64,000 nt of DNA from Pseudogulbenkiania sp. (GTDB lineage: Bacteria > Pseudomonadota > Gammaproteobacteria > Burkholderiales > Chromobacteriaceae), in the NCBI GenBank assembly GCA_018260425.1, contig JAGLBD010000002.1, positions 101,478-165,477 on the forward strand. The letters run 5' to 3'. The position numbers were made by a program, and so were the translations under genes. Below, one piece after another: positions 7,527 to 25,796 of the stretch. The notes under the pieces are model-generated. The model had not been told where the DNA came from. It saw only the letters and a program-made list of their open reading frames with translations, and ran no database searches. How positions within the stretch are numbered: the first letter of the stretch is position 1; each line of letters begins with the position of its first letter.

Positions 7527-7952
7527 TCAGTCTATCGTCCTTTCTACGTTCAATAGCCGCTGACAGGCGGCCAGTTGTTCGGTGTTTCGGTCGGCTTCGG
7601 TGGCGAGTCGAACAAGAAACGCTGCATCCGCAGGCCGAAGTCCGCCTGCCGCGCTTGCATCACGCTGGCCGGCACCGGCGGAGGCATCGGGCACGCGGGC
7701 CGCGAGACGCTGGCGCAGCCGGACAGTACCAGCGCGAAGGCCGGCAATAACACGATCGTTTTCATTACTCTGGCTCCTCCATTTATCCAACAACTCACGG
7801 TCGGCTGTGTTGAACGCAGCGCCTTGGGCGTGTTCGACTTTCCTTGCCTGCTCGCTGGCGGCCACCGCCGAGCCGGCCGCCTGACGCCCCTCCAGATGAC
7901 CCAAAAAATAGGCCAGCACACTGGCCAACCCGACAATCAAGACACCCCGCAT
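7527..7952 (-). CDS. Rz-like inner-membrane spanin subunit (lysis)
   Basis: A 141-residue protein with one N-terminal membrane helix (VLIVGLASVLAYFLGHL region) followed by a long Ala/Arg/Glu-rich coiled periplasmic part. This is the i-spanin architecture that, with Rz1, fuses inner and outer membranes in the final lysis step. A lipoprotein ORF is nested in another frame inside it, which is the classic Rz/Rz1 arrangement. It is the last gene of the tail-lysis operon, and a lysin and holin lie directly upstream. Confidence 0.75.
   Translation of the reverse strand: MRGVLIVGLASVLAYFLGHLEGRQAAGSAVAASEQARKVEHAQGAAFNTADRELLDKWRSQSNENDRVIAGLRAGTVRLRQRLAARVPDASAGAGQRDASAAGGLRPADAAFLVRLATEADRNTEQLAACQRLLNVERTID
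7550..7765 (-). CDS. Rz1-like outer-membrane lipoprotein spanin, nested in Rz
   Basis: A 71-residue ORF lying entirely within the Rz gene in a different frame. It begins MKTIVLLPAFALVLSGCAS, a short signal with an LSGC lipobox, and continues into a Pro-rich mature part (PMPPPVP), as in known Rz1 o-spanins. GGAGGAG lies about ten bases before its ATG, so this start is better than the long track ORF from 7936. It should be lipid-anchored in the outer membrane and pair with Rz. Confidence 0.78.
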   Translation of the reverse strand: MKTIVLLPAFALVLSGCASVSRPACPMPPPVPASVMQARQADFGLRMQRFLFDSPPKPTETPNNWPPVSGY

Positions 7953-7953
7953 A

Positions 7954-8214
7954 TCACCCGCCTCCCTTGGCTTTCGCCAATGCTGTCACGCCCGACCAGA
8001 TTGCCAGCAAAACCCCGCCGACCAATCCAGCCACCACGTAGTTGATGATTTTGTCGCTGATGCCGTCCACCCGCTTGGCCAGCTTGACGGCATCGGCGAC
8101 ACCGGCATCGGCAAACGCTTTCTCGACCGCACGCTTTGCCACCTCCTCCAACAGTTCCTCGAAGGCGTCACGGGGCATCGTCACATCGCCGCAGTCATGG
8201 TGTTTGTCCATCAT
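7954..8214 (-). CDS. Small single-span membrane protein of the lysis cassette
   Basis: An 86-residue protein with an acidic/basic amphipathic N-terminal half and one predicted membrane helix near residues 58-78 (IINYVVAGLVGGVLLAIWSGV). It lies between the lysin and the spanin gene, with its start overlapping the lysin stop by four bases. A role as second holin, antiholin or pinholin is possible but is inferred from location only. I do not recognise the family with confidence. Confidence 0.6.
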   Translation of the reverse strand: MMDKHHDCGDVTMPRDAFEELLEEVAKRAVEKAFADAGVADAVKLAKRVDGISDKIINYVVAGLVGGVLLAIWSGVTALAKAKGGG

Positions 8215-8891
8215 CCCTCCTTATCCAGATACGGCTGATATTTCGGACTCCGCACTTTGATGATGTTGGCCGGATACTCCCGGTTGATGTCGAAGGCCGA
8301 CTTGCCGTAGCCCTTCCACGCCGCCCGGCTCTTGTTGCTGGTCAATTCGACATGACCCCACCAACGCGCCGGATCACACCCCGTGGTTGCCCGGCAAATG
8401 GCCCGATCAGAACGCAGGCCCCCGCCGCCGCCGTTGTAACAGGCCAGCATCATGGCGAGTCCGTCATCACCGGTTGCGCCCGCGGCATAGCGGCGGCACT
8501 CCCGGTCCATCACCAGCAAGGCACGAATCTGCCGTTCGGGGTCGAAACGCTCGGCCCAGCGCCAGCCGGCCAACCCACGGTCCCGGGCTTTGACTTCCTC
8601 GAAGTTATTGAAACGCCGAGTCACGGTAAGCTGCCCCAAGCCGAAACCGTACTCCCGGGCCGTATTGAGTTCGGTGCGGGGATTCCAGCACTTGGGGCTA
8701 TGCAGACTCGGGCAGGTTTCCTGCTCGATTTGCCCGGCAAACAAGGCTCGGGGCCGAATCTCCGGCACGACCTGAACAGCCTGCCGGTCAAGCATCGGCA
8801 AGTACTGGACAGCCCCCGGAGGAATCGAAACGCCCTGGGCAAACACCGGCAGCACGGCCAAGCACCCGAACACTATCCAGTACACCTTCAT
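8211..8891 (-). CDS. Secreted lysozyme-like lytic transglycosylase (lysin)
   Basis: A 226-residue cell-wall hydrolase. The start at 8891 gives a clean signal peptide (MKVYWIVFGCLAVLPVFAQG), which the longer track ORF would bury. The mature protein has the SLT/lysozyme-like pattern: a candidate catalytic Glu in GQIEQETC, then YGFGLGQLTVTRRF and MLACYNGGGGG. The signal peptide suggests Sec export rather than purely holin-dependent release. It lies between the holin and the small membrane protein in the lysis cassette. It would cut peptidoglycan for particle release. Confidence 0.8.
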   Translation of the reverse strand: MKVYWIVFGCLAVLPVFAQGVSIPPGAVQYLPMLDRQAVQVVPEIRPRALFAGQIEQETCPSLHSPKCWNPRTELNTAREYGFGLGQLTVTRRFNNFEEVKARDRGLAGWRWAERFDPERQIRALLVMDRECRRYAAGATGDDGLAMMLACYNGGGGGLRSDRAICRATTGCDPARWWGHVELTSNKSRAAWKGYGKSAFDINREYPANIIKVRSPKYQPYLDKEG

Positions 8892-8893
8892 GG

Positions 8894-9217
8894 TTACCCC
8901 TTGGTCAGCATCAGGGTGATGATCGGCATCAGCGCCTGAATCACCATGCACAAGCCCAGCACCACCAGACCGGCACCGACGGGATGCTCATAGGCACGAT
9001 GGGCAAAGTGCTGCAGATCGACACGGTGAAACAGCACCCGGCGCAACACATGCGCCAGCGCCGTGGCGATGAACGCACACCCGGCGAACTCGACCGGAGG
9101 CGCGGCGGCGGCCGGCAAGCCAACGGAAGACAGATGGCTGCCGGCCAACCAGATCAACACCAGCCCGGCCGCCACCAACAGCGTCAGGCGGATCACATCA
9201 GGAACGACGGTTTTCAT
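8894..9217 (-). CDS. Holin-like membrane protein
   Basis: A 107-residue protein with three hydrophobic stretches (residues about 8-28, 42-60 and 80-104), fitting a class-I holin that opens the inner membrane for lysis. AGGAG lies six bases before the ATG at 9217. It directly precedes the lysin (two-base gap) and follows a terminator hairpin after the fibre-assembly gene. A truncated, internally deleted second copy lies at 11174-11338. The holin call rests on topology and position, not on a recognised family motif. Confidence 0.6.
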   Translation of the reverse strand: MKTVVPDVIRLTLLVAAGLVLIWLAGSHLSSVGLPAAAAPPVEFAGCAFIATALAHVLRRVLFHRVDLQHFAHRAYEHPVGAGLVVLGLCMVIQALMPIITLMLTKG

Positions 9218-9233
9218 ATCAGACTCCTAAAAG

Positions 9234-9255
9234 CAAAAAACCCGCCGAAGCGGGT
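9234..9255 (-). terminator. Terminator-like hairpin after fibre-assembly gene 1
   Basis: On the minus strand, CCCGCTTCGGCGGG is followed by TTTTTTGC immediately after the stop codon. A near-identical copy follows the second fibre-assembly gene. Confidence 0.75.
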
Positions 9256-9692
9256 CAGGATTGAGTCAGGGCAGCGAGCCAGTCAGGAGGTGCCGGCCAC
9301 GATACAGAGGAAGGAAACCCCTTCTGCAGCGGCACGTCGCGCAAGGCCTGGCGATAGGCCATCAAGGCCGAGTACTGAGCACTGGTCAGCGAGGTTTTGA
9401 GAGAACCCTCGACCTGATCGCGGTGCCGGGCAACGATCCAGTCGGTCTGGCCAACCAGCGCATCGCGTTGCAGACGTGCGGAGGCGGCAAGTTGCTCGGC
9501 AGTCGGTGCAGGAGGATCTGCCAGCACGGGCTTGCCGTCAGCACCGGCGACGATGCGTTTACCGGCAGACTGACCGTCCAGCAGGTCACGGTACTGTTTG
9601 TCGGTGATCTCGACGGCGTCGGATGGGATAGTGTTGCCATGGAGTTCGCGGCAGTAGAAGCCGTGGGTTGATGCGCTGTAGAAATAGTTCAT
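9255..9692 (-). CDS. Tail fibre assembly protein (Tfa-like), copy 1
   Basis: A 145-residue chaperone-like protein that assists trimerisation of the adjacent fibre, as for lambda Tfa and Mu gpU. The N-terminus (NYFYSASTHGFYCRELHG) and the PSDAVEITDKQYRDLL and GKPVLADPPAPT segments match the family layout. The start at 9692 is chosen by the paralogue and by a GGA just upstream. It begins one base after the fibre stop. Its sister at 11376-11813 has the same length and is highly similar throughout. Confidence 0.85.
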   Translation of the reverse strand: MNYFYSASTHGFYCRELHGNTIPSDAVEITDKQYRDLLDGQSAGKRIVAGADGKPVLADPPAPTAEQLAASARLQRDALVGQTDWIVARHRDQVEGSLKTSLTSAQYSALMAYRQALRDVPLQKGFPSSVSWPAPPDWLAALTQS

Positions 9693-9693
9693 G

Positions 9694-11049
9694 TCAGTAT
9701 CCGATAGCAATCCAGTTAGCGGCCGCGATGGACCGAGCCGGTGTGGCTGCGACTGACCACACGTTGAATGTGAAGCCACCCCGGGTTGCGGGAGTACCAT
9801 CTAGCGAAAACACATAGGCCCCTGGGTTGACAGCAGCTCCTGAAATCGCAAAGCAGCCATTTGGGAAAACCATTGGAAAATTCCATGTTTGCGCGGCACC
9901 CAATGCCCCATTTACCGCGCCCCATTGGATGATCAGCCCACTCGGCAGCTTCTGCCATCCGTTACTTGCAATCGACGCGCCAAAAATCGATGATGCGCGG
10001 CCAAGTTGAAGCGCACCAGACATCAACCAAGTTCCACCACCTCGATATTCAAAATTTACCGTGTCACCAGTATTGATAGTCACCGACGACGGAGCAACCA
10101 CTCCGTCGGAAATTGAGTCACTGCCCTGAGGAATAACTGTAAAAGCAGCAGTTGCATTCGACCAAAATGAAATCTTTGCGCCGGCATACAAGGTTGAGGA
10201 TGGAGGCAAAGTGATGACAGACGCGATACCCCCGAAGCATTGAATCAGTTGTCCCGCATTGGCTGCAGTCAATGTCGTGCTCGCATTAAGTACCGTGACA
10301 CCGGCATCATTCCCCAGCGCCCGCTGCACAAACTCGGTCGTCGCCAGCTTGGTCGACTTATCGAACTGGGCCGGGCTCTGCATCAGGCTTGGCGACAGGC
10401 CCAGCATGGCCGGGTTGATATAGGGTATCCCCGGCATGGCAGTGATGTGCTGCGCCGTAACGGTGGTCTGGCCGTTAAGTACCGTGATCACCCACAGTCC
10501 GACATTGCCGGTGTCCGGTGCCGGGGTTTGCTGATTGCCACTCGGTGCGGCAATGCCGGCCTTGAGACTGACCACGGCAACCCCGTCTCTGGCCGTTGCC
10601 TGACTTTGGCCATTATTGCCTTGGCCGGTAAAGGGTTGGGAAGGATTGGCACTGTTGTAGTACGGCAGTACCGCCGGGTTGATGTCCTGATCCTGATAGG
10701 CCACCTGCACCAGGTAATTGATGGCCAGGCCGGTGGCGGTCGGTGGCGTCAGGGTCAGACTCACCGAATCTGGCAAGATGCCTTGCTTGAGAACGGTGTG
10801 GGCGGTATCGCCCGGCAAGGTCGACCATGGGCTGGCCTCCACGGACTGCAGGGCATAAATGTTGCCCGGGGCGATGTTGACCTGCAGGCTGGCCGGGGCC
10901 GTCGGTGTGCAGGCAAATCCCGATACGCAGGGGCCAGAGCCCAGAATGTCCTGCATGAGCTTGCCCATGCCGGTCATCATGTCTCTACCCATGTTCAGCA
11001 AGACGGTTTCCGGGAGAACCTGACCGGGATAGACTGTTTCACGGCGCAT
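9694..11049 (-). CDS. Tail fibre protein, copy 1 (variable tip)
   Basis: A 451-residue receptor-binding fibre. The N-terminal 240 or so residues, from MRRETVYPGQVLPETVLLNM to FVQRALGN, are almost identical to copy 2 and would dock on the baseplate. Beyond that point the sequences diverge completely apart from the short tip-proximal motif GWQKLPSGLIIQWG. This conserved-shaft, variable-tip design is typical of contractile-tail fibres, and the tip sets target specificity. The gene is preceded by a terminator-like hairpin and followed by its own Tfa. No invertase or crossover site was seen. Confidence 0.87.
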   Translation of the reverse strand: MRRETVYPGQVLPETVLLNMGRDMMTGMGKLMQDILGSGPCVSGFACTPTAPASLQVNIAPGNIYALQSVEASPWSTLPGDTAHTVLKQGILPDSVSLTLTPPTATGLAINYLVQVAYQDQDINPAVLPYYNSANPSQPFTGQGNNGQSQATARDGVAVVSLKAGIAAPSGNQQTPAPDTGNVGLWVITVLNGQTTVTAQHITAMPGIPYINPAMLGLSPSLMQSPAQFDKSTKLATTEFVQRALGNDAGVTVLNASTTLTAANAGQLIQCFGGIASVITLPPSSTLYAGAKISFWSNATAAFTVIPQGSDSISDGVVAPSSVTINTGDTVNFEYRGGGTWLMSGALQLGRASSIFGASIASNGWQKLPSGLIIQWGAVNGALGAAQTWNFPMVFPNGCFAISGAAVNPGAYVFSLDGTPATRGGFTFNVWSVAATPARSIAAANWIAIGY

Positions 11050-11060
11050 GTGTGCTCCAT

Positions 11061-11338: not shown

Positions 11339-11355
11339 ATCAGACTCCTGAAAGC

Positions 11356-11375: not shown

Positions 11376-11813
11376 TCAGGATTGAGTCAGCGCAGCGAGC
11401 CAGTCAGGCGGTGCTGGCCACGAAACAGCAGCGGGAAATCCCTTCTGAAGCGGCACGTCGCGCAAGGCCTGGCGATAGGCCATCAAGGCCGAGTACTGGG
11501 CACTGGTCAGCGAGGTTTTGAGAGAACCCTCGACCTGGTCGCGGTGCCGGGCAACGATCCAGTCTATCTGGCCAACCAGCGTATCCCGTTGCAGACGTGC
11601 GGAAGCCGCAAGTTGCTCAGCAGTCGGTGCAGGAGGATCGGCCAGAACCGGCTTGCCGTCAGCACCGGTGACGATTCGTTTGCCAGCCGACTGCCCATCC
11701 AGCAGGTCCCGGTACTGTTTGTCGGTGAGTTCGACGGCGTCGGAGGGGATGTCTCGACCATGGAGTTCGTGGCAGAAGAATCCGTTCGCTGAAGCACTAT
11801 AGAATGTGACCAT
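11376..11813 (-). CDS. Tail fibre assembly protein (Tfa-like), copy 2
   Basis: A 145-residue sister of the protein at 9255-9692, sharing PSDAVELTDKQYRDLLDGQS and the whole C-terminal half. Most differences cluster in the first 30 residues, near the fibre-contacting end. The start at 11813 matches the copy-1 start; the in-frame ATG at 11822 is an alternative. It lies two bases after fibre 2 and presumably matures that fibre. Confidence 0.84.
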   Translation of the reverse strand: MVTFYSASANGFFCHELHGRDIPSDAVELTDKQYRDLLDGQSAGKRIVTGADGKPVLADPPAPTAEQLAASARLQRDTLVGQIDWIVARHRDQVEGSLKTSLTSAQYSALMAYRQALRDVPLQKGFPAAVSWPAPPDWLAALTQS

Positions 11814-11815
11814 TT

Positions 11816-13162
11816 TTACCATCCAATATGAATTGCCGAGTAGAGGGTGTCTGCGCCAGTCCACACTGCTAGCCTCCACTGAGACAGACTCACTTTTTCA
11901 TACGTAGCTGACACGGTGATATCGCCTACCGTATCCTGTGCAGTCAGAACTGTGCACAGATGCGTTTTTGTGAACGCCGAGGGAAAATTGAACGTAGTCC
12001 GCACACCATTTGCCACAGGCGATAAAACATTCTGAAATTGGATGATCAACCCTGATGGCAGACGCTGCCATCCATCACCAGATAGTGCCGCAGCAAAAAC
12101 AGATGAAAACTGGAGTTGCTGGCTTCCGGAAAAAACCCAGACACCCGCGGCTTGCAACGTAATCTCTGCCGAATCCCCTGGGCCCAGCACGCAGGATCGA
12201 GTTACCCCGCTCCCCATTGCAAATAATCCATCCCCGCTTCCAGCTGAAATAGTGACAGGATAAGTCGACGCGTTATAGAGCATGTATCGCGAGCCAAAGA
12301 CAATGCTGCTAGAAACAGGCAAACCAAGGGATAAAGGCTGCGCGCCACCAACCTGGAGTAGTTGCCCAAGCTGAGCTGCGGTCAAAGTCCCGCTATAGTA
12401 AACAGGCTGACAACCGCTCACATTCCCCAACGCCCGCTGCACAAACTCGGTCGTCGCCAGCTTGGTCGACTTGTCGAACTGGGCCGGGCTCTGAAGCAGG
12501 CTTGGGGTCATGCCCAGCATTGAGGGGTTGATGTAGGGCGCACCCGGCATGGCGGCGATGTGCTGCGCCGTGACGGTGGTCTGGCCGTTAAGTACCGTGA
12601 TCACCCACAGTCCGACATTGCCGGTGTCCGGTGCCGGGGTTTGCTGATTGCCACTCGGTGCGGCAATGCCGGCCTTGAGACTGACCACGGCAACCCCGTC
12701 TCTGGCCGTTGCCTGACTTTGGCCATTATTGCCTTGGCCGGTAAAGGGTTGGGAAGGATTGGCACTGTTGTAGTACGGCAGTACCGCCGGGTTGATGTCC
12801 TGATCCTGATAGGTCACCTGTACCAGGTAATTGATGGCCAGGCCGGTAGCTGTGGGTGGCGTCAGGGTCAAACTCACCGGGTCTGGCAAGATGCCTTGCT
12901 TGAGAATGGTGTGAGCGGTATCGCCCGGCAAGGTCGACCAGGGGCTGGCTTCCACGGACTGCATGGCATAGATGTTGCCCGGGGCAATGTTGACCTGCAG
13001 GCTGGCCGGGGCCGTCGGCGTGCAGGCAAATCCCGAAACGCAGGGGCCAGAGCCCAGAATGTCCTGCATGAGCTTGCCCATGCCGGTCATCATGTCTCTA
13101 CCCATGTTCAGCAAGACGGTTTCCGGGAGAACCTGACCCGGATAGACAGTTTCACGGCGCAT
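11816..13162 (-). CDS. Tail fibre protein, copy 2 (variable tip)
   Basis: A 448-residue fibre, almost identical to copy 1 up to FVQRALGN (about residue 240) and then unrelated except for GWQRLPSGLIIQFQ in the tip region. The divergent tip is AT-richer than the shaft, consistent with a tip swapped in by recombination. Being promoter-proximal to copy 1, it may be the more abundant fibre. Both copies keep intact frames, so the particle could carry either or both specificities. Confidence 0.87.
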   Translation of the reverse strand: MRRETVYPGQVLPETVLLNMGRDMMTGMGKLMQDILGSGPCVSGFACTPTAPASLQVNIAPGNIYAMQSVEASPWSTLPGDTAHTILKQGILPDPVSLTLTPPTATGLAINYLVQVTYQDQDINPAVLPYYNSANPSQPFTGQGNNGQSQATARDGVAVVSLKAGIAAPSGNQQTPAPDTGNVGLWVITVLNGQTTVTAQHIAAMPGAPYINPSMLGMTPSLLQSPAQFDKSTKLATTEFVQRALGNVSGCQPVYYSGTLTAAQLGQLLQVGGAQPLSLGLPVSSSIVFGSRYMLYNASTYPVTISAGSGDGLFAMGSGVTRSCVLGPGDSAEITLQAAGVWVFSGSQQLQFSSVFAAALSGDGWQRLPSGLIIQFQNVLSPVANGVRTTFNFPSAFTKTHLCTVLTAQDTVGDITVSATYEKVSLSQWRLAVWTGADTLYSAIHIGW

Positions 13163-13227: not shown

Positions 13228-13878
13228 TCAGCTGGCGATGCGTGTCCACACCAGCGTGCCGACCGGCTTGACGGCATTGATGGCCGTCAGGATGTCGGCG
13301 TCGGTCACGGCAGGCTGGATCATGCTATAGGGGGTCAGCACCGCCCCCTGACCCGTAGTAAAGACCGGGGTCGCAATACCGGGATAACCTGCAGCCCCGT
13401 TGCCAAGCGGCCGGAACACCGTGACAAAGGCCTGATAGGGCATGGCAAACGAGCCGATGCACCCGGCACTGCCCAGAGCCAGATTCACCCCGAGCGCACC
13501 ACAATCGGCAATGCGGGCCGGTTCAATGACTACCGGTTTACGTCCGGTCAGATCAGTCAGCACCCGCTCGATGGCCTGGCGGGTACCCCGCTCGCGAAAC
13601 AAGGCAATACGAATCCGGTTCCTGAAACTGCTATCGGACTGGTTGGCGCCACGTCGCAGCTCATCGCCAAAAAAGTCGCGTGCCAGCAGATCCAGAAACA
13701 TATCGGACATGCTTTTCAAGCGGAGCTGGTCACGGGCATAGCCATACAAAGAGAAAAACCATGCGTGCGCCGTCGCCAGTCCGGCAAGCACGGCATCCAG
13801 CACCGGGTTGGCATCACCGAACCAGGGTGGTAGCCGGGCCGCCAGCCGCTGAACAATGTTGCTTGAATCACCTTTCAT
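13228..13878 (-). CDS. Baseplate/tail protein, Mu gp48 / P2 gpI-like
   Basis: A 216-residue baseplate-edge protein that connects the wedge to the fibres in contractile tails. It has the family look (RLPPWFGDANPVLDAVLAGLATA, and RIRIALFRERGTRQAIERVL in the middle). The start ATG at 13878 overlaps the stop of the gpJ-like gene as ATGA, so the longer track ORF is rejected. It occupies the Mu gp48 position, between the gp47-like gene and the fibre. Its last 20 codons are duplicated at 11117-11176. Confidence 0.82.
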   Translation of the reverse strand: MKGDSSNIVQRLAARLPPWFGDANPVLDAVLAGLATAHAWFFSLYGYARDQLRLKSMSDMFLDLLARDFFGDELRRGANQSDSSFRNRIRIALFRERGTRQAIERVLTDLTGRKPVVIEPARIADCGALGVNLALGSAGCIGSFAMPYQAFVTVFRPLGNGAAGYPGIATPVFTTGQGAVLTPYSMIQPAVTDADILTAINAVKPVGTLVWTRIAS

Positions 13879-15002
13879 CAGCTCACCCCCACATCGACAG
13901 ACTTGATGACCTGCTGTCCGGATGCCAGCAAATCGGCACTCCCGCCATTCACGGTCACCCCGGTCACATTGGTGATGGCCGGACTGACGCCATAGGCCAG
14001 ACTGACCAGCATCGACCATGGCAGTGACTGCCCCAGCTTCAGGCTATTCACGTAGGAAAGAATGGCCTGTCGCACCAAGGCCGCCGCCGCGGCATGCTCG
14101 ACCGAACCGTCGGTGGTCACGGACAAACGAATCACTGCCAGCAGCCGAACCGGCTTAAACACGGCAAAGGTACTGGTAAAGGGCCGAACCTGATCGATGG
14201 CGTTATAGGCGGACGACAGGGTGGTCGAGGTCGGACTTCCCGTGCCGTCATCCACCACCACATAGAAAAAGCCTGGTTGCAGTGCTCCTTCATACGTCTG
14301 GTTCTCCACCACCTTGCAGCTCATGCCCTGCCCCATCGACAACACCGCGTACTCGACCGCCGCCCGGGTTGCCTTGGACAAGCTGGCCACCCACGCCACA
14401 AAACGGCGACGTGCGGCCTCATCCGCTTCGGCATCCTGCCCTGCCGACATCGGCGCAGCATTGATGCAACGGTCGATGCCGGGCAAGGCCCCGGTGATCT
14501 GGGTCACGCTACCGGCCAGCGTATTGCCGGCAGCACCATCGTGGATGGCCACCACCGGCACCTCGATCGCCGCGACGCCTGCCGCCAGCGCATACCCGCC
14601 CTGATCATCGGACCATGCCGGATTCGCTGTATCCGGCACCACCCGGTAACTCTGGCTGCCATCCGCCGTTTGCACGGTGGAGCCAGCCGGGATCAGCGCC
14701 GGCATACCGGGAGAAAACCGGCTGAAGGTCACGCGCCCCCGGGCGGGAACTGCCGGCAGCCGGGCAAAGCCAAAATCCGCCAGCCAACTGTCCAGATCCG
14801 CACCGGAGCAGGTCGCCGCCCGGGTCGTCGCCAACAGGTTCAGCACCAACTGCTGCAGCCACTGCACCACGCTGGCATTGCTCTCTGCCAACGCGCGCAT
14901 CAAGGAACCAACCGAGGTATCGACCAGCCCGGCTGCCCGAGCCTGAATGGCCGTTACCTGCTCACTGACCAATTGAGGCCAGGTTTTTATCGTGAACGCC
15001 AT
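13878..15002 (-). CDS. Baseplate J-like protein (Mu gp47-like)
   Basis: A 374-residue baseplate wedge protein of the gpJ/gp47/T4 gp6-like family. The N-terminus (TIKTWPQLVSEQVTAIQARA) and the central ADGSQSYRVV and AGSVTQITGALPGID segments are typical of baseplate J. It follows the gp46-like gene by five bases and overlaps the gp48-like gene. Together with gp46 and gp48 analogues it would form the wedge that triggers sheath contraction. Confidence 0.88.
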   Translation of the reverse strand: MAFTIKTWPQLVSEQVTAIQARAAGLVDTSVGSLMRALAESNASVVQWLQQLVLNLLATTRAATCSGADLDSWLADFGFARLPAVPARGRVTFSRFSPGMPALIPAGSTVQTADGSQSYRVVPDTANPAWSDDQGGYALAAGVAAIEVPVVAIHDGAAGNTLAGSVTQITGALPGIDRCINAAPMSAGQDAEADEAARRRFVAWVASLSKATRAAVEYAVLSMGQGMSCKVVENQTYEGALQPGFFYVVVDDGTGSPTSTTLSSAYNAIDQVRPFTSTFAVFKPVRLLAVIRLSVTTDGSVEHAAAAALVRQAILSYVNSLKLGQSLPWSMLVSLAYGVSPAITNVTGVTVNGGSADLLASGQQVIKSVDVGVS

Positions 15003-15007: not shown

Positions 15008-15373
15008 TTACCTATCGAGAGTGAAAGCAAGGTTCTGCCACTGCCCGCTCGGGACATCCTGATATCGGATATCCACGGCCACCCCGTCTTGCAGTGCGGT
15101 GACCGCTACGTCGGGCCGGGGGGTGCGTGCGATGGCGCTTTCCAGTTGCAGTTGCGCCATGATCAAGGCCCGGATTGCCTGGATGTCCAGTACCGCACCG
15201 ACAAAACGACCAATGCCGGCACCGTAGTCCGGATGCGCCTGATAGTCGCCGGGGTTGGTGGCAAGACGCCGCAACAGCCGTTGTTTGCCACACTCCGGAC
15301 CCGATACCGGCTGCAGGTCTCCGGTTGCCGAAATCGACAGGTCACTCCCGACGTAATGGAACAGATCTCTCAT
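15008..15373 (-). CDS. gp25/GPW-like baseplate wedge protein (Mu gp46-like)
   Basis: A 121-residue lysozyme-related wedge protein of the T4 gp25/P2 gpW class, needed to nucleate sheath polymerisation. The RRLATNPGDYQAHPDYGAGIG segment is characteristic. Its start overlaps the spike gene stop as ATGA, showing translational coupling in the baseplate block. Confidence 0.83.
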   Translation of the reverse strand: MRDLFHYVGSDLSISATGDLQPVSGPECGKQRLLRRLATNPGDYQAHPDYGAGIGRFVGAVLDIQAIRALIMAQLQLESAIARTPRPDVAVTALQDGVAVDIRYQDVPSGQWQNLAFTLDR

Positions 15374-17105: not shown

Positions 17106-18190
17106 AAGGGAAACCTTGCATCAGGGTGACGGAACGGGCCAACCGGAACAGGCGGAATCCGGATCGTGTTGACGCCTTCGGGCAGCACCGGGTCATCAAG
17201 ATGATTGGCCTGAGCGAGCAAGGGCCACAAGGTCACGTCGCCCAACTCCCGTGCCGCCACGTCATACAGGTCGCCCGCCGTCTGGGTAATGGTTTTGAGG
17301 GCCTGACCGGCCTTCGCCTCGGCTTTGGACAGCGACGCCGCGACCGTCCCCACCTTCGCCGCAAATACCGGCAACAGCTCCAGCTTCTTGCCGGCACCGG
17401 TCAGGGTATCCTGCAAGCGGTACAAGCCCGGCAACGCGACCGCCGCATCCAGCCGCTCCGTCATCTCCTGGGCCGCACGCGCTACCGGATTTCCCGGCAA
17501 CACGCCGCCTAGCGTCGCGACCGTCATGACCCCCTTCTCCAGAGTGGTAATGCGCTCCTTGACAACCTGCTGCACACTGACCAACTCGCTGACGATCGAC
17601 TGGGCTTTGGCCAGCCCCGCCGAGGCAAGGTCATGCGCCGTCCCGATCGCTTCTTGCAGGTTTTTTGCGGCAGCCATGATGGTCGAGTCGCCACTCTCCC
17701 CCGCCAAGGCTTGCGCCTCGCCAACCGCTTCGACCACCTCGCGACTGCTATCCGGCTCGTCTTCCGCCGGCTCGTCACTCACGCTGTCCAGCACCGTGCA
17801 GCGCAGGGTGTAGTCGATATGGGCATGGTCCCGATAGATTGAGTGATAGTTAGCCACCACCACGCGGTAGCGATACACGTCCCAGCTCAACAGCCACTCT
17901 TTTGCACCGCTGGCGAGCGCCCTGAGCGTCTGGTCCCGTTCCACCGCCGTCAAACCGGTCAGTGAGCCGGACCAGCTGACCGGTTCATAGAAGCTGCCCA
18001 TCGAGTCGACCACCCGCCCCCCGCCGACCAACTCGTGATCGACCAGACGTTGCTGGAGACTGGTTTCTATCGACTGCGGCAATTCATCATTCTTGAACTC
18101 GATATCCCCCAACGTCAGACGTGTCTCGCCCAGAATGTCCTGCTGCGCGGCGGACTCGTCGCCCCCCGCTACCACCTTGCTTATCGTCAT
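17102..18190 (-). CDS. Mu gp43-like tail/DNA-circularisation-domain protein
   Basis: A 362-residue tail protein in the gpN/gp43 position. Residues about 25-130 (ETRLTLGDIEFKNDELPQSIE through ALASGAKEWLLSWDVY) match the DNA-circularisation-protein N-terminal domain found in Mu-like tails. The C-terminal tail (ARELGDVTLWPLLAQANHLDDP) looks like a LysM-type module that may bind the hub. Only eight bases separate it from the tape measure gene, and it overlaps the hub gene by four. Confidence 0.8.
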   Translation of the reverse strand: MTISKVVAGGDESAAQQDILGETRLTLGDIEFKNDELPQSIETSLQQRLVDHELVGGGRVVDSMGSFYEPVSWSGSLTGLTAVERDQTLRALASGAKEWLLSWDVYRYRVVVANYHSIYRDHAHIDYTLRCTVLDSVSDEPAEDEPDSSREVVEAVGEAQALAGESGDSTIMAAAKNLQEAIGTAHDLASAGLAKAQSIVSELVSVQQVVKERITTLEKGVMTVATLGGVLPGNPVARAAQEMTERLDAAVALPGLYRLQDTLTGAGKKLELLPVFAAKVGTVAASLSKAEAKAGQALKTITQTAGDLYDVAARELGDVTLWPLLAQANHLDDPVLPEGVNTIRIPPVPVGPFRHPDARFPL

Positions 18191-18198: not shown

Positions 18199-20094
18199 TC
18201 ATGCCGGATGGGGCGCGCCAAGCCGTGGATCGAAACCACGGGTACTGGCGGCCGGTTTACCCATTTCACGCGCCTGATGACGCGACACCGCTTCGGCAAC
18301 CGGGCGTGAATCGATATGAATCTGGGTATGCACCTGCGTCACCGGTTTGGTCGCAGGAGGCGTCACCTGAGGGCGTTTGACCTCGGAGTCCCCCATGCCG
18401 AAAATCCCTTTGACCTTGTTTATCGCGTTAGAGATAAAGTCGGTGATTCCGGTCCAGATCGCCTTGATTTTAGGGCCGATGGTGTCCCAATTGCTCCACA
18501 GCAGATACACCGCCGCGGCAATCGCCGCAATCGCCAGCCCGATCGGATTCAACAACAGCGCCCTGCCGAAGGTCTGCACCCCGCCACCCAGTAGCTTCAG
18601 GGCACCAGACGCCAGCTTGAAGCCTTTGGAAACCCCCTCCAGCAGACTGGAAATGGCACTGGAGGCCAGGCGGGAAGCGAGAGAAATCAACTGACCGATG
18701 GCCGGCATGATCGTTTTGAGCAGCTTGCCCGACAACGCTTCGACACGATTCGCCAGTTCCTGGGCATGGCCCCCCAGCCCCGTGAACTTTTTACCGATGT
18801 CGGCAATCCGCCCACTGAACTTGATCACCAGGTCCCCGCCTTCCTTGACGCACTTGCCGAGTCCGCCAAGATGATCTCCCATCTTGGAAACCGCTCCGCC
18901 CAGCTTGCCGAACTGCTTGCCGATATCGATGACCTTGCGGCCCAGCTCGATCATTTTTTTACCGGCCCCGGTGACCTCCCGGCCCAGCGAGATCACTTTT
19001 TGGCCTGCCTCGGCCATATCTCGCCCGAAGCCGGTGACTTTGCGTCCCATCGCGGCGAGCTGGCCACCGGTCTCGGTGATCCCCCCGCCCAAATCGCTGA
19101 TAAAGCGACCGACTTTGCCAGTGTTGCCACCACACTGCTCCAGCATGCCCCCCAGCGCTGTCACGCGACCGCCCAATCGGGATGTCTGATCCCCTACCCC
19201 GGTCAGACTCTCACCGACTTTGCCGACCTGATTACCGGTCTGCACCACCTTGGAACCAAAGGCACTGATCTCCTTGCCGGCGGCCACCAGTTGCTTACCG
19301 CTCTGCACCGTATCTTTGCCCACGGCGACCACAACGGCACCGGTCGCGGCGATATCACGTCCGGTTTGCGTCACACGCTGCCCCAGGGCAATGATTTTTT
19401 CACCGCCGCTGACCATGCCCTTACCCAACGCCGCCACACCTTGCGCTAGACCGGCTCCGGACGGGCCCTGGGGTTTACCTGCTCGAGGAACACCGGCCCC
19501 GAACAGGCCTCCAGGAGACGATTTGCCGGCGTGATGCGGAGTTTTGGGGTGCCGAGCCGGCAACGGAGGCCGTTGCGACGCTTTTTTGGTCAAAGACGGC
19601 GGTCGCTGCTTCACCCGCGGCAAGGCGGCCTGCCCTTGTCCTTTTCGTGCCACCGGCAGTGATGTGGCATGTGCAGGTTTTTTTGCCGGGTTGCCACTCG
19701 CGGTAGATGCACAGCCGACCCGCAACGCAAGCAAGGTCACGCAGGCCTTGCCGATACTCTGCTCGACGCTACGGCCGCATAGCACCAGCGCCACGGCCAC
19801 GCGGTTTCCATCGTGTCCCGTGCCAGAGCCGAGCTGCACTGCCTTGAGTTGGGCGGCCACCCGGCCGGCGTGGCTTATTTCCTGTACGGTCTGGCGGAAT
19901 AAGGACAAAACAGAATTGCCGGTCGCCGTCAAACGCGCTCCCTGACGCATCAGGTCCTCGAGACCGCGCAGAGTCTGGCCGAGCCGGGAGGATGCGGCCT
20001 CCAGCGTGACAAAATTGTCGACCAGAGCCAGCAAGCCCGAGTTGGTATCATTCAGTTGGTTCAGGTTCAGTCCTGTCCCGTTCGAATCAATCAT
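18199..20094 (-). CDS. Tail tape measure protein with 29-fold glycine heptad
   Basis: A 631-residue tape measure protein, which sets tail length and occupies the tube lumen. Residues about 224-426 are 29 consecutive heptads each starting with Gly (GKQLVAA GKEISAF GSKVVQT style), consensus G-x-x-h-x-x-h, with more imperfect units to about 461. Hydrophobic segments at about 465-535 (LISLASRLASSAISSLLEG; IGLAIAAIAAAVYLLW) are usual for tape measures. A basic Pro-rich linker (about 137-215) precedes the repeat. At roughly 0.15 nm per helical residue the protein implies a tail near 95 nm. No peptidase domain was seen. Confidence 0.85.
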   Translation of the reverse strand: MIDSNGTGLNLNQLNDTNSGLLALVDNFVTLEAASSRLGQTLRGLEDLMRQGARLTATGNSVLSLFRQTVQEISHAGRVAAQLKAVQLGSGTGHDGNRVAVALVLCGRSVEQSIGKACVTLLALRVGCASTASGNPAKKPAHATSLPVARKGQGQAALPRVKQRPPSLTKKASQRPPLPARHPKTPHHAGKSSPGGLFGAGVPRAGKPQGPSGAGLAQGVAALGKGMVSGGEKIIALGQRVTQTGRDIAATGAVVVAVGKDTVQSGKQLVAAGKEISAFGSKVVQTGNQVGKVGESLTGVGDQTSRLGGRVTALGGMLEQCGGNTGKVGRFISDLGGGITETGGQLAAMGRKVTGFGRDMAEAGQKVISLGREVTGAGKKMIELGRKVIDIGKQFGKLGGAVSKMGDHLGGLGKCVKEGGDLVIKFSGRIADIGKKFTGLGGHAQELANRVEALSGKLLKTIMPAIGQLISLASRLASSAISSLLEGVSKGFKLASGALKLLGGGVQTFGRALLLNPIGLAIAAIAAAVYLLWSNWDTIGPKIKAIWTGITDFISNAINKVKGIFGMGDSEVKRPQVTPPATKPVTQVHTQIHIDSRPVAEAVSRHQAREMGKPAASTRGFDPRLGAPHPA

Positions 20095-20203: not shown

Positions 20204-20376
20204 TTAGTCGCTACGCTCGAACTCCATGCTCTGAAGGTTGAATGTATGGCCTCTGAACTCGGAAAACATAATGCTCCAGGCCGCTCTTTCCACCTCCTCC
20301 AGTGCAAAGGCGATGTCGAACGGTACGCCGTTCTTCACCAGCCAGAGGCACTCGCGCAGCGGCCCGGAGCGAATCA
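20204..20376 (-). CDS. -1 frame extension of tail chaperone (57 codons, frameshift product)
   Basis: In the -1 frame relative to the chaperone gene, directly behind the slippery heptamer, 57 codons stay open (LIRSGPLRECLWLVKNGVPF ... MEFERSD) until TAA at 20204. There is no start codon with a ribosome binding site of its own, so it should be made only as a fusion with the upstream chaperone, giving about 185 residues. This matches the G/GT arrangement of lambda and its equivalents in most long-tailed phages. The longer form normally binds the tape measure, whose gene follows next. The track's 20211-20561 ORF is in the third frame and is not this product. Confidence 0.82.
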
Positions 20377-20760
20377 GTTTCCCAGCGACGCCTGAAACTC
20401 GTCCGGCGTCTGCGGCACAGCGAAATGCTCTTCGACACCGCGGGCCACCGCCTGCAAGCCATCCTCGTCCAGACGCTGGACGATGGCTTCCAGTTCACGC
20501 TTGCTGGCCGGTTTGTAGACCGCCTCGCCATTGATGGCGACCACATACAGCACCGGAACAACGATATTCAGGTACATATCGTTTTTAGCGGTTGCACCGA
20601 GCGCCTCGATAAGATGCAACTGGTCCAGCACACCAGGTTTTTTCAGGGTAAGGGTTCGCCCCAGCGCATCGACGACATCGACGCTACGGTTGAGACGTGC
20701 GCGGAGTTCATCGGCCGCAGAAGGGGCTTCAACAACGGGTTTTACCGAAACACGAGCCAT
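20374..20760 (-). CDS. Tail assembly chaperone, short form (Mu gp41-like)
   Basis: A 128-residue acidic/helical protein located between the tail tube and tape measure genes, exactly where tail assembly chaperones lie. The start at 20760 has AGGTGG about eight bases upstream; the track's 20766 start is a TTG. The frame ends in CTG GGA AAC TGA, so the stop follows directly on a GGGAAAC slippery heptamer. Motifs such as LKKPGVLDQLHLIEALG and the C-terminal VPQTPDEFQASLGN are typical of this class. Confidence 0.82.
   Translation of the reverse strand: MARVSVKPVVEAPSAADELRARLNRSVDVVDALGRTLTLKKPGVLDQLHLIEALGATAKNDMYLNIVVPVLYVVAINGEAVYKPASKRELEAIVQRLDEDGLQAVARGVEEHFAVPQTPDEFQASLGN
20377..20383 (-). 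promoter_or_regulatory. Programmed -1 ribosomal frameshift site GGGAAAC
   Basis: Read on the minus strand, codons CTG GGA AAC TGA contain G-GGA-AAC, a perfect X-XXY-YYZ heptamer. Slippage by -1 avoids the adjacent stop and enters a 57-codon open frame. The same principle, with GGGAAAG, operates in lambda gpG-gpT. Confidence 0.85.
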
Positions 20761-20762
20761 GA

Positions 20763-21194
20763 TCAAGCCACCTTTCTACGACGTTCAGCCACAAAACTGA
20801 CTTTTTGCGGTACGGTTTCATCAGCCTTCCAGGCACCCGCGTCATCCAGCTTGAGCAGGACACCTTCAAAGCGGTATTGGCTGATGCTGCCATCCGGTTC
20901 ATTGATCGTTTCGGTAATGGTGATCGGATTTTCTCCATTGCCGGCAAAGTAGTTGTCTTCCAGCGCGCAGAAGTAATCATCCAGCGTCGAATCACTGCGT
21001 TCAGCTTCGAAAGAGCCCGACCAGCCGTCAAAGAAACGCTGGTGCACGGTGCGACCGGTGATCAGCTTGATTTTTTTGTCATTCAGATCCTGCTTGGAGC
21101 TGAAGTTTTTCAGACCGGCCAGACGCAGCGGGCCGGTCGCGGTAATGAAGTCGAGGGACACGTCGCGTCCAGTGGAAAATTCGCCGATAGGCAT
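20763..21194 (-). CDS. Tail tube protein (Mu gpM / FluMu-like)
   Basis: A 143-residue inner tube protein. It has the compact beta architecture of Mu-type tubes: an N-terminal GEFSTGRDVSLDFITATG, a central FFDGWSGSFEAERSDSTLDDYF and a C-terminal RFEGVLLKLDDAGAWKADE. The gene lies 49 bases after the sheath gene and its stop overlaps the chaperone leader. Tube hexamers would polymerise around the tape measure. Confidence 0.85.
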   Translation of the reverse strand: MPIGEFSTGRDVSLDFITATGPLRLAGLKNFSSKQDLNDKKIKLITGRTVHQRFFDGWSGSFEAERSDSTLDDYFCALEDNYFAGNGENPITITETINEPDGSISQYRFEGVLLKLDDAGAWKADETVPQKVSFVAERRRKVA

Positions 21195-21243: not shown

Positions 21244-22791
21244 TTAACGCGGGTTGTTGGCAACTTGAACGGTGACGGACTGACCAGCTTCCAGATTGAC
21301 GATGAAGTAGAAGATCACCGACAAGTACTTCACTTGCACGTCAGCTTGCATGTAGCCCAGCGCGACGCGGTCGTCGGGATTGTTTTCCTTGTCCAGCTTC
21401 ACCGAAAACGCCGGACCACCATTTACATTGCCGATCATCGATTGGCGCTGCAGATTGAGTAGGAAGGTTTCGATGGCACTCTTCACTTCCCTGCGCAAAT
21501 CCGGGGTCTGGTTCTGGCCGATGGCGTAGCCGAAGGCCCCCGCCAGCGTCAGGGCAATGAAGTTGGTCATACGGGTGTAGTTGTCGCCATTACGGGTCGG
21601 GTCCGACGAGCAATTGCGACCGGTTTGACCGGCGTAATAGCTACCGCCCGGAGACGGATTGGCAATCACGTCCAGGCGCCCCCCGACAATCGAACCGATT
21701 TCCGCGCCGCTGTACGGCTGGTTCTGCGCCATGCGCTGAGTCCCGGTCGCATTGGCAATCGGCTTGTTCAGGGTGGACACATGCGGAGCTTGCGCGGCAC
21801 ATTGGGCGGCCAGGAACGAGGCTGGCGCCATGAGCCGGCTCTGACCGTTGACGGCGTCCTGCCAGTACACCCAGTCACCCACCAACACCTTCAGGTACGG
21901 GGTATCGACACCGGCCGTCGCGAGAGCCGTAGACACAGTCTGGGCCGACGCACTGACCGACCCTTGGGTAAAGCCATAGATCCCCTCCGCCGCACAAAAG
22001 GCCGCGATGCCCGGCCACTGGGTCGCATCGCAGACCTCGACCAGATTCATCACTTGTACGCCGGTGCCACGCAGGGCATACATCCCTTTGCGCACCATGC
22101 CGTCCTGACCGATCAGGGTGGCATCGGTGACGCCAGCCGCGCCATCGCTGCCACCGGCAAATGCCACGGCACTCCCCAACGCCGGAGCAGCGGTCGATGC
22201 ACCCGCCGTGGCGGTCACCAGTTGCGAAGGGCCCCGGACCGACGACAAGCCGCTATTCACGGCATTGGCGAGGTTGCTCCAAAACGCCGCACCGGTGCCG
22301 GTCAGGCCATCAAAGATCTCCGGGGCGAATCCCTGCCGTTGCAGGACCAGCTTGAAACTATTCGGCTTGGTGCCGGCCGCAATCATGGCGCTGAGCGTGT
22401 TACCGACCACACCGCTGTAAAGCGCGGTCAGCGTGACACCGACCGCCGGCGTGGCGGCCGCATCCATCAGTTTGACCGAGGCCGCCGTATCGGTACCGTC
22501 GGTGACCCGCACGATGCGCTGGTTGCTGGCACCCAACTGGATGCCGATAGCAATGGCACTGGCCAGATCGTATTTGCGCACTTGCTGGGTACCGAACAAA
22601 GCGACGGCATCGGTCGGACTTCCCACCAGGGTCGGCGCATTGACCGGCCCCCAGGACGCGACGCCCACCTGGCCATAGATATCGGTCGGTACGCCATTGA
22701 TCACCCGGGTCTTGGGCGGAATGACCTGAATGTAAACACCAGGGGTTTGCAGACCGGCGGTATTGAGTTGTCCTACGGGATAGACAGGCAT
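21244..22791 (-). CDS. Contractile tail sheath protein (Mu gpL-like)
   Basis: A 515-residue sheath subunit. The N-terminal PGVYIQVIPPKTRVINGVPTD and the GQVGVASWGPVN stretch are hallmark sheath features. The C-terminal IGYMQADVQVKYLSVIFYF-type and LEAGQSVTVQV segments form the conserved core that gives handshake contacts between subunits. Its presence makes this a contractile (R-type) rather than flexible (F-type) tail. It is followed by the tube gene, as in Mu. Confidence 0.92.
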   Translation of the reverse strand: MPVYPVGQLNTAGLQTPGVYIQVIPPKTRVINGVPTDIYGQVGVASWGPVNAPTLVGSPTDAVALFGTQQVRKYDLASAIAIGIQLGASNQRIVRVTDGTDTAASVKLMDAAATPAVGVTLTALYSGVVGNTLSAMIAAGTKPNSFKLVLQRQGFAPEIFDGLTGTGAAFWSNLANAVNSGLSSVRGPSQLVTATAGASTAAPALGSAVAFAGGSDGAAGVTDATLIGQDGMVRKGMYALRGTGVQVMNLVEVCDATQWPGIAAFCAAEGIYGFTQGSVSASAQTVSTALATAGVDTPYLKVLVGDWVYWQDAVNGQSRLMAPASFLAAQCAAQAPHVSTLNKPIANATGTQRMAQNQPYSGAEIGSIVGGRLDVIANPSPGGSYYAGQTGRNCSSDPTRNGDNYTRMTNFIALTLAGAFGYAIGQNQTPDLRREVKSAIETFLLNLQRQSMIGNVNGGPAFSVKLDKENNPDDRVALGYMQADVQVKYLSVIFYFIVNLEAGQSVTVQVANNPR

Positions 22792-22812
22792 GTAGCAATC
22801 TCCAGAAATGGC

Positions 22813-22835: not shown

Positions 22836-22913
22836 ATACCGGGTAAAACACAAAGGTCGCCAAAGGCTGGCGGCGAGGCGCAGCTGCCGGGCATGGCAAC
22901 TGCCATGAATGCC

Positions 22914-23741
22914 TCAAAACGGTTTGGAAACGGTTGGCGAAGTGTCGCCCCCCACGAACAACGACTCATTGATCGACAGCACCTGGGCAAATTGCGCTTG
23001 CCGGGTCACGGCATACTCGATAGTCAGCACAATGTCGCGGCGGTAGAGCGGGTGATCCTGACGCACATCACTGTCCAACGAGCGCCGGTAGACCATCCGT
23101 GGCGTAGAACCATCCGGCATCCCCGTCAAGACACGGGTATCCACCAGCACGGGCATCAGCAGATTTGCCAATGCCCGTTTGCTCTCGGGCGAATCAGCCA
23201 GAATGGACACCACAAACTCTTTTTCAATCCGGCAAAGTTCACGGATCACCGTATCGAATCCACCGACCCGCGCCAGCAACTGGCGGGTAGCCGGAGGAAA
23301 GGTCAGCGTGGTTCCCGACACGGTCGCCCCGGGAAACAGTGCGGCCAGCGCCGCAGCGCAACTCTCCAGCCGGCTGCCGGCCGGCACGGCCACGCTTTTG
23401 GCGACGCCATCCACCAACAGCAGCAGGTTGTGCGCCGTCTGCGTGGAGCCGGACAAGGTGACCGACGCGCCCGACACGCCAGCCTTGACGGTGATCTGGG
23501 CGTGCTTCAGGGTTCGCCAGTGATCCACGAAGCGGGTGGTCTTGCGTTCGTTTTCCAGGGAACTGATGAAAACATGACTGCAGCCGGCTGCAAGATCCGC
23601 CTCGAGCTGCGCCTGCAGCGGTTGCAGTGTTTCGATCACCACGGCGCGTCCGGTGACGGAAGCCTGTGCCGGCCCGGCCGGGTACAGCACCTCGGTCACC
23701 ACTCGCTTCAGGGCATCCTGCACATCCATCAAATCAGCCAT
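22914..23741 (-). CDS. Tail-associated structural protein, unassigned
   Basis: A 275-residue protein just upstream of the sheath gene. The start at 23741 (MADLMDVQDALKRVVTEVLY) is preferred, as the track ORF includes a terminator-like stem. It has a mixed alpha/beta sequence (VIETLQPLQAQLEADLAAGC; DSDVRQDHPLYRRDIVLTIEY), no signal peptide and no membrane helix. Position suggests a tail terminator or tail-completion protein that caps the tube, equivalent to Mu gp36/37, but I cannot confirm this by motif. It overlaps the preceding ORF by eight bases. Confidence 0.68.
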   Translation of the reverse strand: MADLMDVQDALKRVVTEVLYPAGPAQASVTGRAVVIETLQPLQAQLEADLAAGCSHVFISSLENERKTTRFVDHWRTLKHAQITVKAGVSGASVTLSGSTQTAHNLLLLVDGVAKSVAVPAGSRLESCAAALAALFPGATVSGTTLTFPPATRQLLARVGGFDTVIRELCRIEKEFVVSILADSPESKRALANLLMPVLVDTRVLTGMPDGSTPRMVYRRSLDSDVRQDHPLYRRDIVLTIEYAVTRQAQFAQVLSINESLFVGGDTSPTVSKPF

Positions 23742-24003: not shown

Positions 24004-24055
24004 GACCCGACTCCCAATAAAGCCTGAAGGACACACGCCCCCGGCACGACCCATG

Positions 24056-24088
24056 AAAAAAGCCCTGGCGCTTTGACAGCGGCAGGGC
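24056..24088 (-). terminator. Terminator-like hairpin
   Basis: Minus-strand GCCCTGCCGCT and AGCGCCAGGGC-type arms followed by a six-T run, between the 24210-24719 gene and the 89-residue ORF. Confidence 0.55.
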
Positions 24089-24154
24089 CTCGTAACTTCA
24101 TCTCATTGTCCGGGATACGGGCGGCGACCAAGATGCAGTCCGCTCTCCGGAAAT

Positions 24155-24186
24155 GAAAAAACCCGAACTGCAGACGCAATTCGGGT
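24155..24186 (-). terminator. Terminator downstream of the 24210-24719 gene
   Basis: Minus-strand ACCCGAA-loop-TTCGGGT followed by seven T residues, 24 bases after the gene. Together with the next hairpin it separates the leader genes from the structural block. Confidence 0.7.
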
Positions 24187-24209
24187 AGCTGCAAACAGTA
24201 TAAAAAATT

Positions 24210-24719
24210 TCACGCCGCAATGCAAGCCCCCGGCAAACCGGAGTGATCCGGAGCCGATGCCAACAGTTCGGAAAGCTGTGGCGTCAAGGCTTCCAGCGCG
24301 GTAGCCAACTGGGCATCCAACAACAGAAAAGCCTGCTGCTTGCGACGTGTCAGGGTCGGGGTCGAGAGCAGATACGTTTCGGCCATGCTTTTTTGGTCCC
24401 GTGCCAGAGAACCGTCATGCGCCCACCCGCGAGTCAGTTCGCGACGCAATGGCGTCGGCCAGCCAGCGGGCAAGCATTTTGCCGCGGTGTTGATTGCACG
24501 GATATCGCGGGTAAAGCGGGCGGCCAGCGCTGAATACTGCGCTTCCGGCAACCGCGCTACCTTGGCAAGCACCTCCATGGCGATGGCCTTTTCTTCGACA
24601 TACGTCAACTCGCTGACGGAGCGTCCAGTCCGCTCCCGATAGTTGCGCACCTCCACAGGAGTCGCCACGCTGACCTGGAACGCCCACCCCAGCACATTGC
24701 TCACGGTCTTGAATTCCAT
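24210..24719 (-). CDS. Unknown cytoplasmic helical protein, leader of the tail operon
   Basis: A 169-residue protein with no signal peptide or membrane helix. Features are VRNYRERTGRSVSELTYVEEKAIAMEVLAK near the N-terminus, a basic middle (RFTRDIRAINTAAKCLPAGW) and a leucine-rich helical C-terminus (LLLDAQLATALEALTPQLSELL). It is the first sizeable gene opposite the repressor and is followed by two terminator hairpins before the tail genes. An activator or antiterminator for the structural genes would fit this position, but no recognised motif supports it. Confidence 0.6.
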   Translation of the reverse strand: MEFKTVSNVLGWAFQVSVATPVEVRNYRERTGRSVSELTYVEEKAIAMEVLAKVARLPEAQYSALAARFTRDIRAINTAAKCLPAGWPTPLRRELTRGWAHDGSLARDQKSMAETYLLSTPTLTRRKQQAFLLLDAQLATALEALTPQLSELLASAPDHSGLPGACIAA

Positions 24720-24722
24720 CGC

Positions 24723-24905
24723 TCAACTTTCCCCTTTTTGTCCAACGAAGACGACACCTGCCCTCCACTCCCCAGTCCGGCCTCTGCCACTGCCGGTAGC
24801 CTCCCCGCCTGGCGGTGCGGGCTTGCCTGACATGAGCGGCAGATAAAAACCGGTAGGAAAGCACCGGTAAACAATGGCAACGGCAACTGGATACATGAAT
24901 GTCAC
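24723..24905 (-). CDS. Possible small hydrophobic-start protein at operon head
   Basis: A 60-codon ORF beginning at a GTG (24905) that has AAGGAG about ten bases upstream. It ends four bases before the next gene. The N-terminus is hydrophobic (MYPVAVAIVYRCF) and the rest is Gly/Pro-rich. It could be a real leader peptide gene or chance. I do not recognise it. Confidence 0.38.
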   Translation of the reverse strand: MTFMYPVAVAIVYRCFPTGFYLPLMSGKPAPPGGEATGSGRGRTGEWRAGVVFVGQKGES

Positions 24906-24955
24906 GTGAGCAAATCTCCTTGGTTCACAAACTATCATCACCATCACAATGGCGA

Positions 24956-25070
24956 TTTGATACGCATATCAAACCTTTTTTCGCAATGATGATAGCGTTT
25001 CAATACGTAAACGAATAGTATCTCGCTCAAATCAGGATTACAATACGCAAATGAATTTCCGTTTGCGTAT
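24956..25070. promoter_or_regulatory. Divergent promoter region with repeated operator-like dyads
   Basis: Between the repressor gene and the tail operon lie three related dyads. TTTGATA-CGCA-TATCAAA is at 24956-24973, CGTTT-loop-AAACG spanning ATACGTAAA is at 24996-25013, and perfect nine-base arms ATACGCAAA/TTTGCGTAT are at 25043-25051 and 25062-25070. The shared half-site ATACG(C/T)AAA suggests cooperative binding by the adjacent repressor. No LexA-type box was seen. Confidence 0.6.
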
Positions 25071-25091
25071 ATATTGACGTATAGTTATCAC

Positions 25092-25796
25092 ATGGAACTC
25101 AAAGACATTCTGCAGCGCCTGATGACAGCCGCTGGCGACACACAAAACGGACTGGCCGAAGCGACCAAGGTGCCGCAGCCTACGATTTTCAGGATTCTCA
25201 AGGGTGAAAGCCGGGATCCACGCCATGCCACGCTGAAACCGATTGCCGATCGCTACGGCATCACCGTGGCACAATTGCGTGGCGAGGATCCTATCGAGAA
25301 CTGGCCATCCAGCGAGGCCCCCACCTCGCCTGGAGCACCTGCAGCCGCATCGATTCGGCCTTATCTGTCACTGGACGAACTCGACCCGGATCAATATGTG
25401 ATGGTCGATCGTTTTGATGTGTTTCTTTCAGCGGGGAGCGGCAACTTTCAATGGGTCATCAATCAGAAAGATCCGCTGGCATTCCGGGCACGATGGTTTC
25501 AGCAAAAGCGAATTTCTCCTGAGCATTGTAAGGCGCTGTATGTCAGGGGACGTTCGATGGAACCCAAACTGGAAGACTGGGACACGGTACTGATCGACAC
25601 GACCCAGACCAACATCATTGATGGTGAAATCTACGCCGTCAGTCTCGGTGACCAGTTTTTCATCAAGACGATTCATCGCCTTGCCGATGGGGTATTACTG
25701 CAATCGGAAAACCCAGAGTTCGAGAACATTGCCGTCAAAGGTGAGCAGCTCGAGCAACTGAGAGTGATCGGCAAAAAGGTCTGGCGCGGCGGATAA
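25092..25796 (+). CDS. XRE/S24 phage-type repressor, LexA/CI-like
   Basis: A 234-residue two-domain repressor. The N-terminal XRE helix-turn-helix (residues about 5-60) contains KVPQPTIFRILKGESRDPR. The C-terminal S24 peptidase-like domain has the nucleophile in VRGRSMEPKLEDWD, a Lys in FFIKTIHR, and an Ala-Gly candidate autocleavage site in FLSAGSGNF. Such repressors self-cleave when RecA is activated. ATG 25092 replaces the track's TTG start. Only about seven bases lie between a TATAGT-like element and this ATG, so a leaderless transcript is possible. It is divergent from the tail operon and is the obvious candidate controller. Confidence 0.86.
   Translation: MELKDILQRLMTAAGDTQNGLAEATKVPQPTIFRILKGESRDPRHATLKPIADRYGITVAQLRGEDPIENWPSSEAPTSPGAPAAASIRPYLSLDELDPDQYVMVDRFDVFLSAGSGNFQWVINQKDPLAFRARWFQQKRISPEHCKALYVRGRSMEPKLEDWDTVLIDTTQTNIIDGEIYAVSLGDQFFIKTIHRLADGVLLQSENPEFENIAVKGEQLEQLRVIGKKVWRGG

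What the first reader, a model, noticed from the sequence alone, without database searches (positions are those of the whole stretch)
7527..25796. Mu-type contractile tail island without head genes: putative R-type tailocin
The minus strand carries, in exact Mu order, sheath, tube, chaperone, tape measure, gp43 to gp48-like genes, fibre/Tfa, then holin, lysin and Rz/Rz1. A divergent XRE/S24 repressor sits at the head. I see no capsid, portal, terminase, protease, integrase, transposase or replication gene, although all tail and lysis parts look intact. This is the known composition of R-type bacteriocins, but with a Mu-like rather than P2-like backbone.
Basis: partly seen in the sequence, partly recalled or inferred. 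Interest (0 to 1): 0.85.

Follow-up and report, generated by a model that had tools for sequence, protein, structure and literature searches.

The report
Headless phage-tail weapon, not Mu-derived
This bacterium carries an intact, long-maintained set of phage genes for building contractile tails without heads, very likely an R-type tailocin used to puncture competitors; its ancestor is a tRNA-integrating temperate phage that resembles Mu in tail gene order but not in sequence, and a second headless island arose separately from the same phage family within the same genus.

Summary
Window 7527-25796 carries a complete contractile tail, two tandem fibre/chaperone cassettes, a full lysis cassette and a divergent S24 repressor, with no head, packaging, replication or integration gene. 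The orthologous island in a sister species (G039) has the same gene order and neighbours. All 21 gene pairs compared are open with dN/dS below 1 (tube 0.03, sheath 0.08). This is a maintained R-type tailocin by anatomy, not a decaying prophage.

The Mu label is wrong by sequence; only the order is Mu's. BLAST of three tail proteins against 50,697 phage records, Mu among them, gives temperate phiKX1/2 as best hits, and the sheath profile matches P2 FI rather than Mu L. Full prophages of this tail family carry other heads; a decaying one sits at the same tRNA-Ser in another species.

New points: (a) the head module is missing exactly between late leader and tail terminator; (b) a Neck1 connector gene inside the tail operon is also absent from all five headless islands but present in all 13 headed loci; (c) a second headless island in the genus arose separately (AU p=6e-6); (d) a conserved promoter-terminator element implies antitermination control. 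Killing is untested. Mu-derived tailocins were already known.

The parts
25074..25796 (+). XRE/S24 repressor (likely ATG at 25092); proposed SOS switch
   Evidence: phrog_4 1.4e-40; 84% identical in G039
25003..25070 (.). Three operator-like sites ATACGYAAAYG (25003-25013 +, 25043-25053 +, 25060-25070 -) in the divergent intergenic region
   Evidence: the only three exact matches of the motif in 64 kb; similar sites in G039
24210..24719 (-). Late regulator, proposed Q/AlpA-like antiterminator
   Evidence: 50% identical to the gene between RusA and terminase in prophage L036; weak Sigma70_r4 in that relative; alignment A4
24155..24225 (-). Late promoter-terminator element: -35 TTGCAT 24225-24220, 17 nt, -10 TATACT 24202-24197, 11-bp terminator hairpin 24186-24161 plus T run
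   Evidence: 56 of 57 bases identical in G039; folding z -4.7; same layout in prophages L036 and L038
23734..24054 (-). Small ORF kept in tailocin and phages between late regulator and head/tail genes; function unknown
   Evidence: 76% in G039, 40-51% in prophages
22914..23741 (-). Tail terminator (cap)
   Evidence: phrog_13532; AlphaFold pLDDT 82.6; Foldseek: phage 812 neck, P1 tail, CIS cap, lambda gpU, R2 pyocin collar
21244..22791 (-). Tail sheath
   Evidence: phrog_23 2.6e-44; nearest solved sheaths 8bky/8bl4
20763..21194 (-). Tail tube
   Evidence: phrog_12993, position; 94% in G039, dN/dS 0.03
20204..20766 (-). Tail assembly chaperone G/GT: frame 20374-20766, slippery site GGGAAAC 20383-20377, -1 extension to 20204
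   Evidence: slippery site and extension conserved in G039; AAAAAAC at the same place in phages
18199..20094 (-). Tape measure, 631 aa
   Evidence: phrog_28 and others
17102..18190 (-). gp43-like (DNA circularisation / tail) protein
   Evidence: phrog_21362; position
16008..17105 (-). Baseplate hub (gp44/gpD-like)
   Evidence: phrog_52 1e-37; profile matches Mu gp44 and P2 D
15370..16011 (-). Baseplate spike (gp45/gpV-like)
   Evidence: Phage_base_V 1.6e-8
15008..15373 (-). Baseplate wedge (gp46/gpW-like)
   Evidence: phrog_975, phrog_120
13878..15002 (-). Baseplate_J (gp47-like)
   Evidence: PF04865 5.1e-30
13228..14019 (-). gp48/gpI-like baseplate protein
   Evidence: phrog_26379 6e-72; position
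11816..13162 (-). Tail fibre, first cassette
   Evidence: phrog_11518
11376..11879 (-). Fibre assembly protein (Tfa), first cassette
   Evidence: phrog_188 1e-48
9694..11049 (-). Tail fibre, second cassette; N-terminal part nearly identical to the first, C-terminal ~200 aa different
   Evidence: phrog_4209 1e-37; Gp53-like_C; identity profile
9255..9800 (-). Fibre assembly protein (Tfa), second cassette
   Evidence: phrog_188 6e-52
8894..9217 (-). Holin
   Evidence: phrog_8226 1.7e-5
8211..8951 (-). Endolysin with N-terminal signal
   Evidence: phrog_669 1.7e-20
7954..8214 (-). 86-aa protein with one membrane segment, lysis cassette
   Evidence: 54% in G039
7527..7952 (-). Rz inner-membrane spanin
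   Evidence: phrog_1327 8.9e-18
7550..7765 (-). Rz1 outer-membrane lipoprotein nested in Rz (lipobox LSGC)
   Evidence: translation
35421..35511 (-). tRNA-Ser(GGA), presumed ancestral attachment site (now 9 kb from the repressor; 256 bp in G039)
   Evidence: prophage at the same tRNA in G043 with att repeats

Best explanation
An R-type (contractile) tailocin, descended from a tRNA-Ser-integrated temperate myophage of a phiKX-like family. Proposed working: (1) DNA damage makes the S24 repressor cleave itself and leave the ATACGYAAAYG operators (inferred from family). (2) The divergent late regulator is made and lets RNA polymerase pass the terminator placed about 10 nt behind the -10 of the late promoter, as phage Q or P. 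aeruginosa AlpA do (inferred from anatomy). (3) The operon yields terminator-capped sheath/tube tails with baseplates and two fibre types (genes shown, assembly inferred). Head genes and the Neck1 connector are gone, so no DNA can be attached (shown by absence). (4) Holin, endolysin and Rz/Rz1 lyse the producer (inferred). (5) Released tails bind surface glycans of susceptible relatives through the variable fibre tips, contract and depolarise the membrane (inferred from R-type tailocins).
For: All tail and lysis genes present and open. Head genes absent from window and genome. Orthologous headless island at the same locus in G039 with identical order. All 21 gene pairs dN/dS below 1 at dS about 0.8-2.4. 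Conserved frameshift site. Neck1 gene absent from all 5 headless, present in all 13 headed loci; among 53 fully covered phage/genome loci 51 have it. Tail terminator retained. Late element 56/57 identical between species.
Against: No particle, induction or killing data. The sigma-70 match of the late promoter is moderate. The late regulator has no significant match to a known antiterminator. No immunity or resistance determinant is known here.
Confidence: 0.87

Rival explanations
1. A defective prophage on its way to decay that merely happens to have lost its head genes.
For: It derives from a prophage family whose copies in G043 and G044 are visibly decaying (TerL fragments, frameshifts).
Against: All frames open in two species that are saturated at synonymous sites, with dN/dS 0.03-0.47; conserved frameshift site and late element; loss of only head/connector and early genes while tail, lysis and regulators stay.
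Confidence: 0.06
2. A contractile injection system of the eCIS or cytoplasmic kind that delivers a protein cargo or acts inside the producer.
For: The closest solved sheaths are 8bky/8bl4, whose further entries (9gtp, 9gts) include a Streptomyces contractile injection system; the terminator model also resembles CIS caps.
Against: No AAA+ ATPase or cargo-like gene was found in the island; there are a dedicated lysis cassette, Tfa-dependent fibres, a tape measure and an S24 repressor, as in tailocins.
Confidence: 0.03
3. A tail-donating or satellite-like element that supplies or steals tails in company with a co-resident phage.
For: Tail-only gene content.
Against: The connector gene needed to join a head is the one lost; the genome has no related terminase or Mu portal; no integration or replication gene.
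Confidence: 0.02

Closest known systems
R-type syringacin of Pseudomonas syringae (Rp4), reported as Mu-derived (PMC12090994; PMC8319346; Hockett 2015 not readable here)
   Same: Contractile headless tail with fibre/chaperone and lysis genes, not of the P2/R2-pyocin lineage; fixed chromosomal site.
   Different: Site is trpD/E-G there, tRNA-Ser here. The present tail matches phiKX phages, not Mu. In 300 genomes of the genus of P. fluorescens HK44 only 5 had a closely similar sheath. Direct sequence comparison with Rp4 was not possible.
BceTMilo of Burkholderia cenocepacia (PMC5411513)
   Same: Headless myotailocin; breakpoint lies between tail and head genes; P2 gene S, thought to dock the tail to the capsid, is lost: analogous to the Neck1 loss here.
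   Different: P2/KL3-like backbone and gene order.
Komagataeibacter phages phiKX1/phiKX2 and prophages of the same tail family (L036, L030/31, L001-L005)
   Same: Same tail gene order and homologous sheath, hub and J proteins (24-38% to phiKX1, 53-74% sheath/J to prophages).
   Different: They carry terminase, portal, scaffold and coat genes; the prophages also carry the Neck1 gene.
Phage Mu tail
   Same: Order from sheath to gp48 and fibre/Tfa.
   Different: Little sequence similarity; Mu places Neck1-type G with the head genes and lysis genes elsewhere.
AlpA of P. aeruginosa and lambdoid Q (PMC7969949, PMC6606751)
   Same: Regulator gene, promoter, and intrinsic terminator just downstream, ahead of lysis or late genes.
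   Different: No sequence similarity found; antitermination not shown here.

Membership tests
R-type tailocin | Complete contractile tail: sheath, tube, tape measure, baseplate, spike, fibres, cap | tested here: met
R-type tailocin | No capsid, portal, terminase, replication or integration genes linked | tested here: met
   flank genes identified
R-type tailocin | Lysis cassette and stress-type regulator linked to the tail genes | tested here: met
R-type tailocin | Maintained intact over evolution at a fixed site | tested here: met
R-type tailocin | Headless particles that kill related strains | not testable with these tools
   needs induction, electron microscopy, spot tests
Mu-like tail | Mu tail gene order (sheath, tube, chaperone, tape measure, 43-48, fibre, Tfa) | tested here: met
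Mu-like tail | Sequence kinship with Mu tail proteins above that with P2 | tested here: not met
P2-like (R2 pyocin) tail | P2 gene order and sequence | tested here: not met
   P2 order differs; only distant similarity, sheath to FI 2.6e-8
Rp4 syringacin clade | Sequence clade of the P. syringae tailocin | not tested
   no named P. syringae sequence could be fetched; the locus differs
eCIS | AAA+ ATPase and cargo genes | tested here: not met
   none among island proteins
Q/AlpA-type antiterminated operon | Promoter with intrinsic terminator immediately downstream behind a regulator gene | tested here: met
Q/AlpA-type antiterminated operon | Regulator homologous to a known antiterminator | tested here: inconclusive
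   no hit in PHROGs, Pfam, NCBIfam or PDB; weak Sigma70_r4 in a relative

The most novel reading that the evidence does not exclude
One temperate myophage family is predisposed to become tailocins: in a single genus two separate lineages (and probably a third in Herbaspirillum) lost the head module and, independently, the Neck1 connector gene that lies inside the tail operon, while keeping repressor, late regulator with promoter-terminator element, tail terminator and tail; each of the two in-genus islands carries two fibre genes. This would be a repeatable recipe for turning a phage into a weapon.
Probability: 0.5. Interest if true: 0.62.

Novelty: new variant of a known kind. Interest (0 to 1): 0.5.

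Why it matters
Tailocins are known to have arisen from P2-, Mu- and lambda-type tails. This adds a phiKX-type backbone and, unusually, shows relatives at different stages: full prophages, a decaying prophage at the very same tRNA-Ser, and two separately arisen headless islands in one genus. The repeated absence of a head-tail connector gene from inside the tail operon, with the tail terminator kept, gives a simple sequence signature that separates tailocins from decayed prophages. The promoter-terminator element gives a directly testable model for how such weapons are held off.

Tried and rejected
Mu ancestry: rejected by BLAST and profile comparison. Shorter tape measure as a mark of domestication: rejected for this island (631 aa against 601-728 aa in phages); G040/G042 are shorter (557, 502) but two lineages prove nothing. 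PF06074 as a probe for this family's heads: it finds true Mu-like portals elsewhere, not this family's SPP1-like portal. PF04984 misses this sheath even in its own genome, so negative family searches for the sheath mean little. Remnant att repeat in window or G039: none found. BceTMilo recalled as Mu-like: wrong, it is P2/KL3-like. Homology of the late regulator to solved antiterminators: none. Solved structures for the fibre tips and a sequence profile of the terminator: no match. Rfam: only the tRNA.
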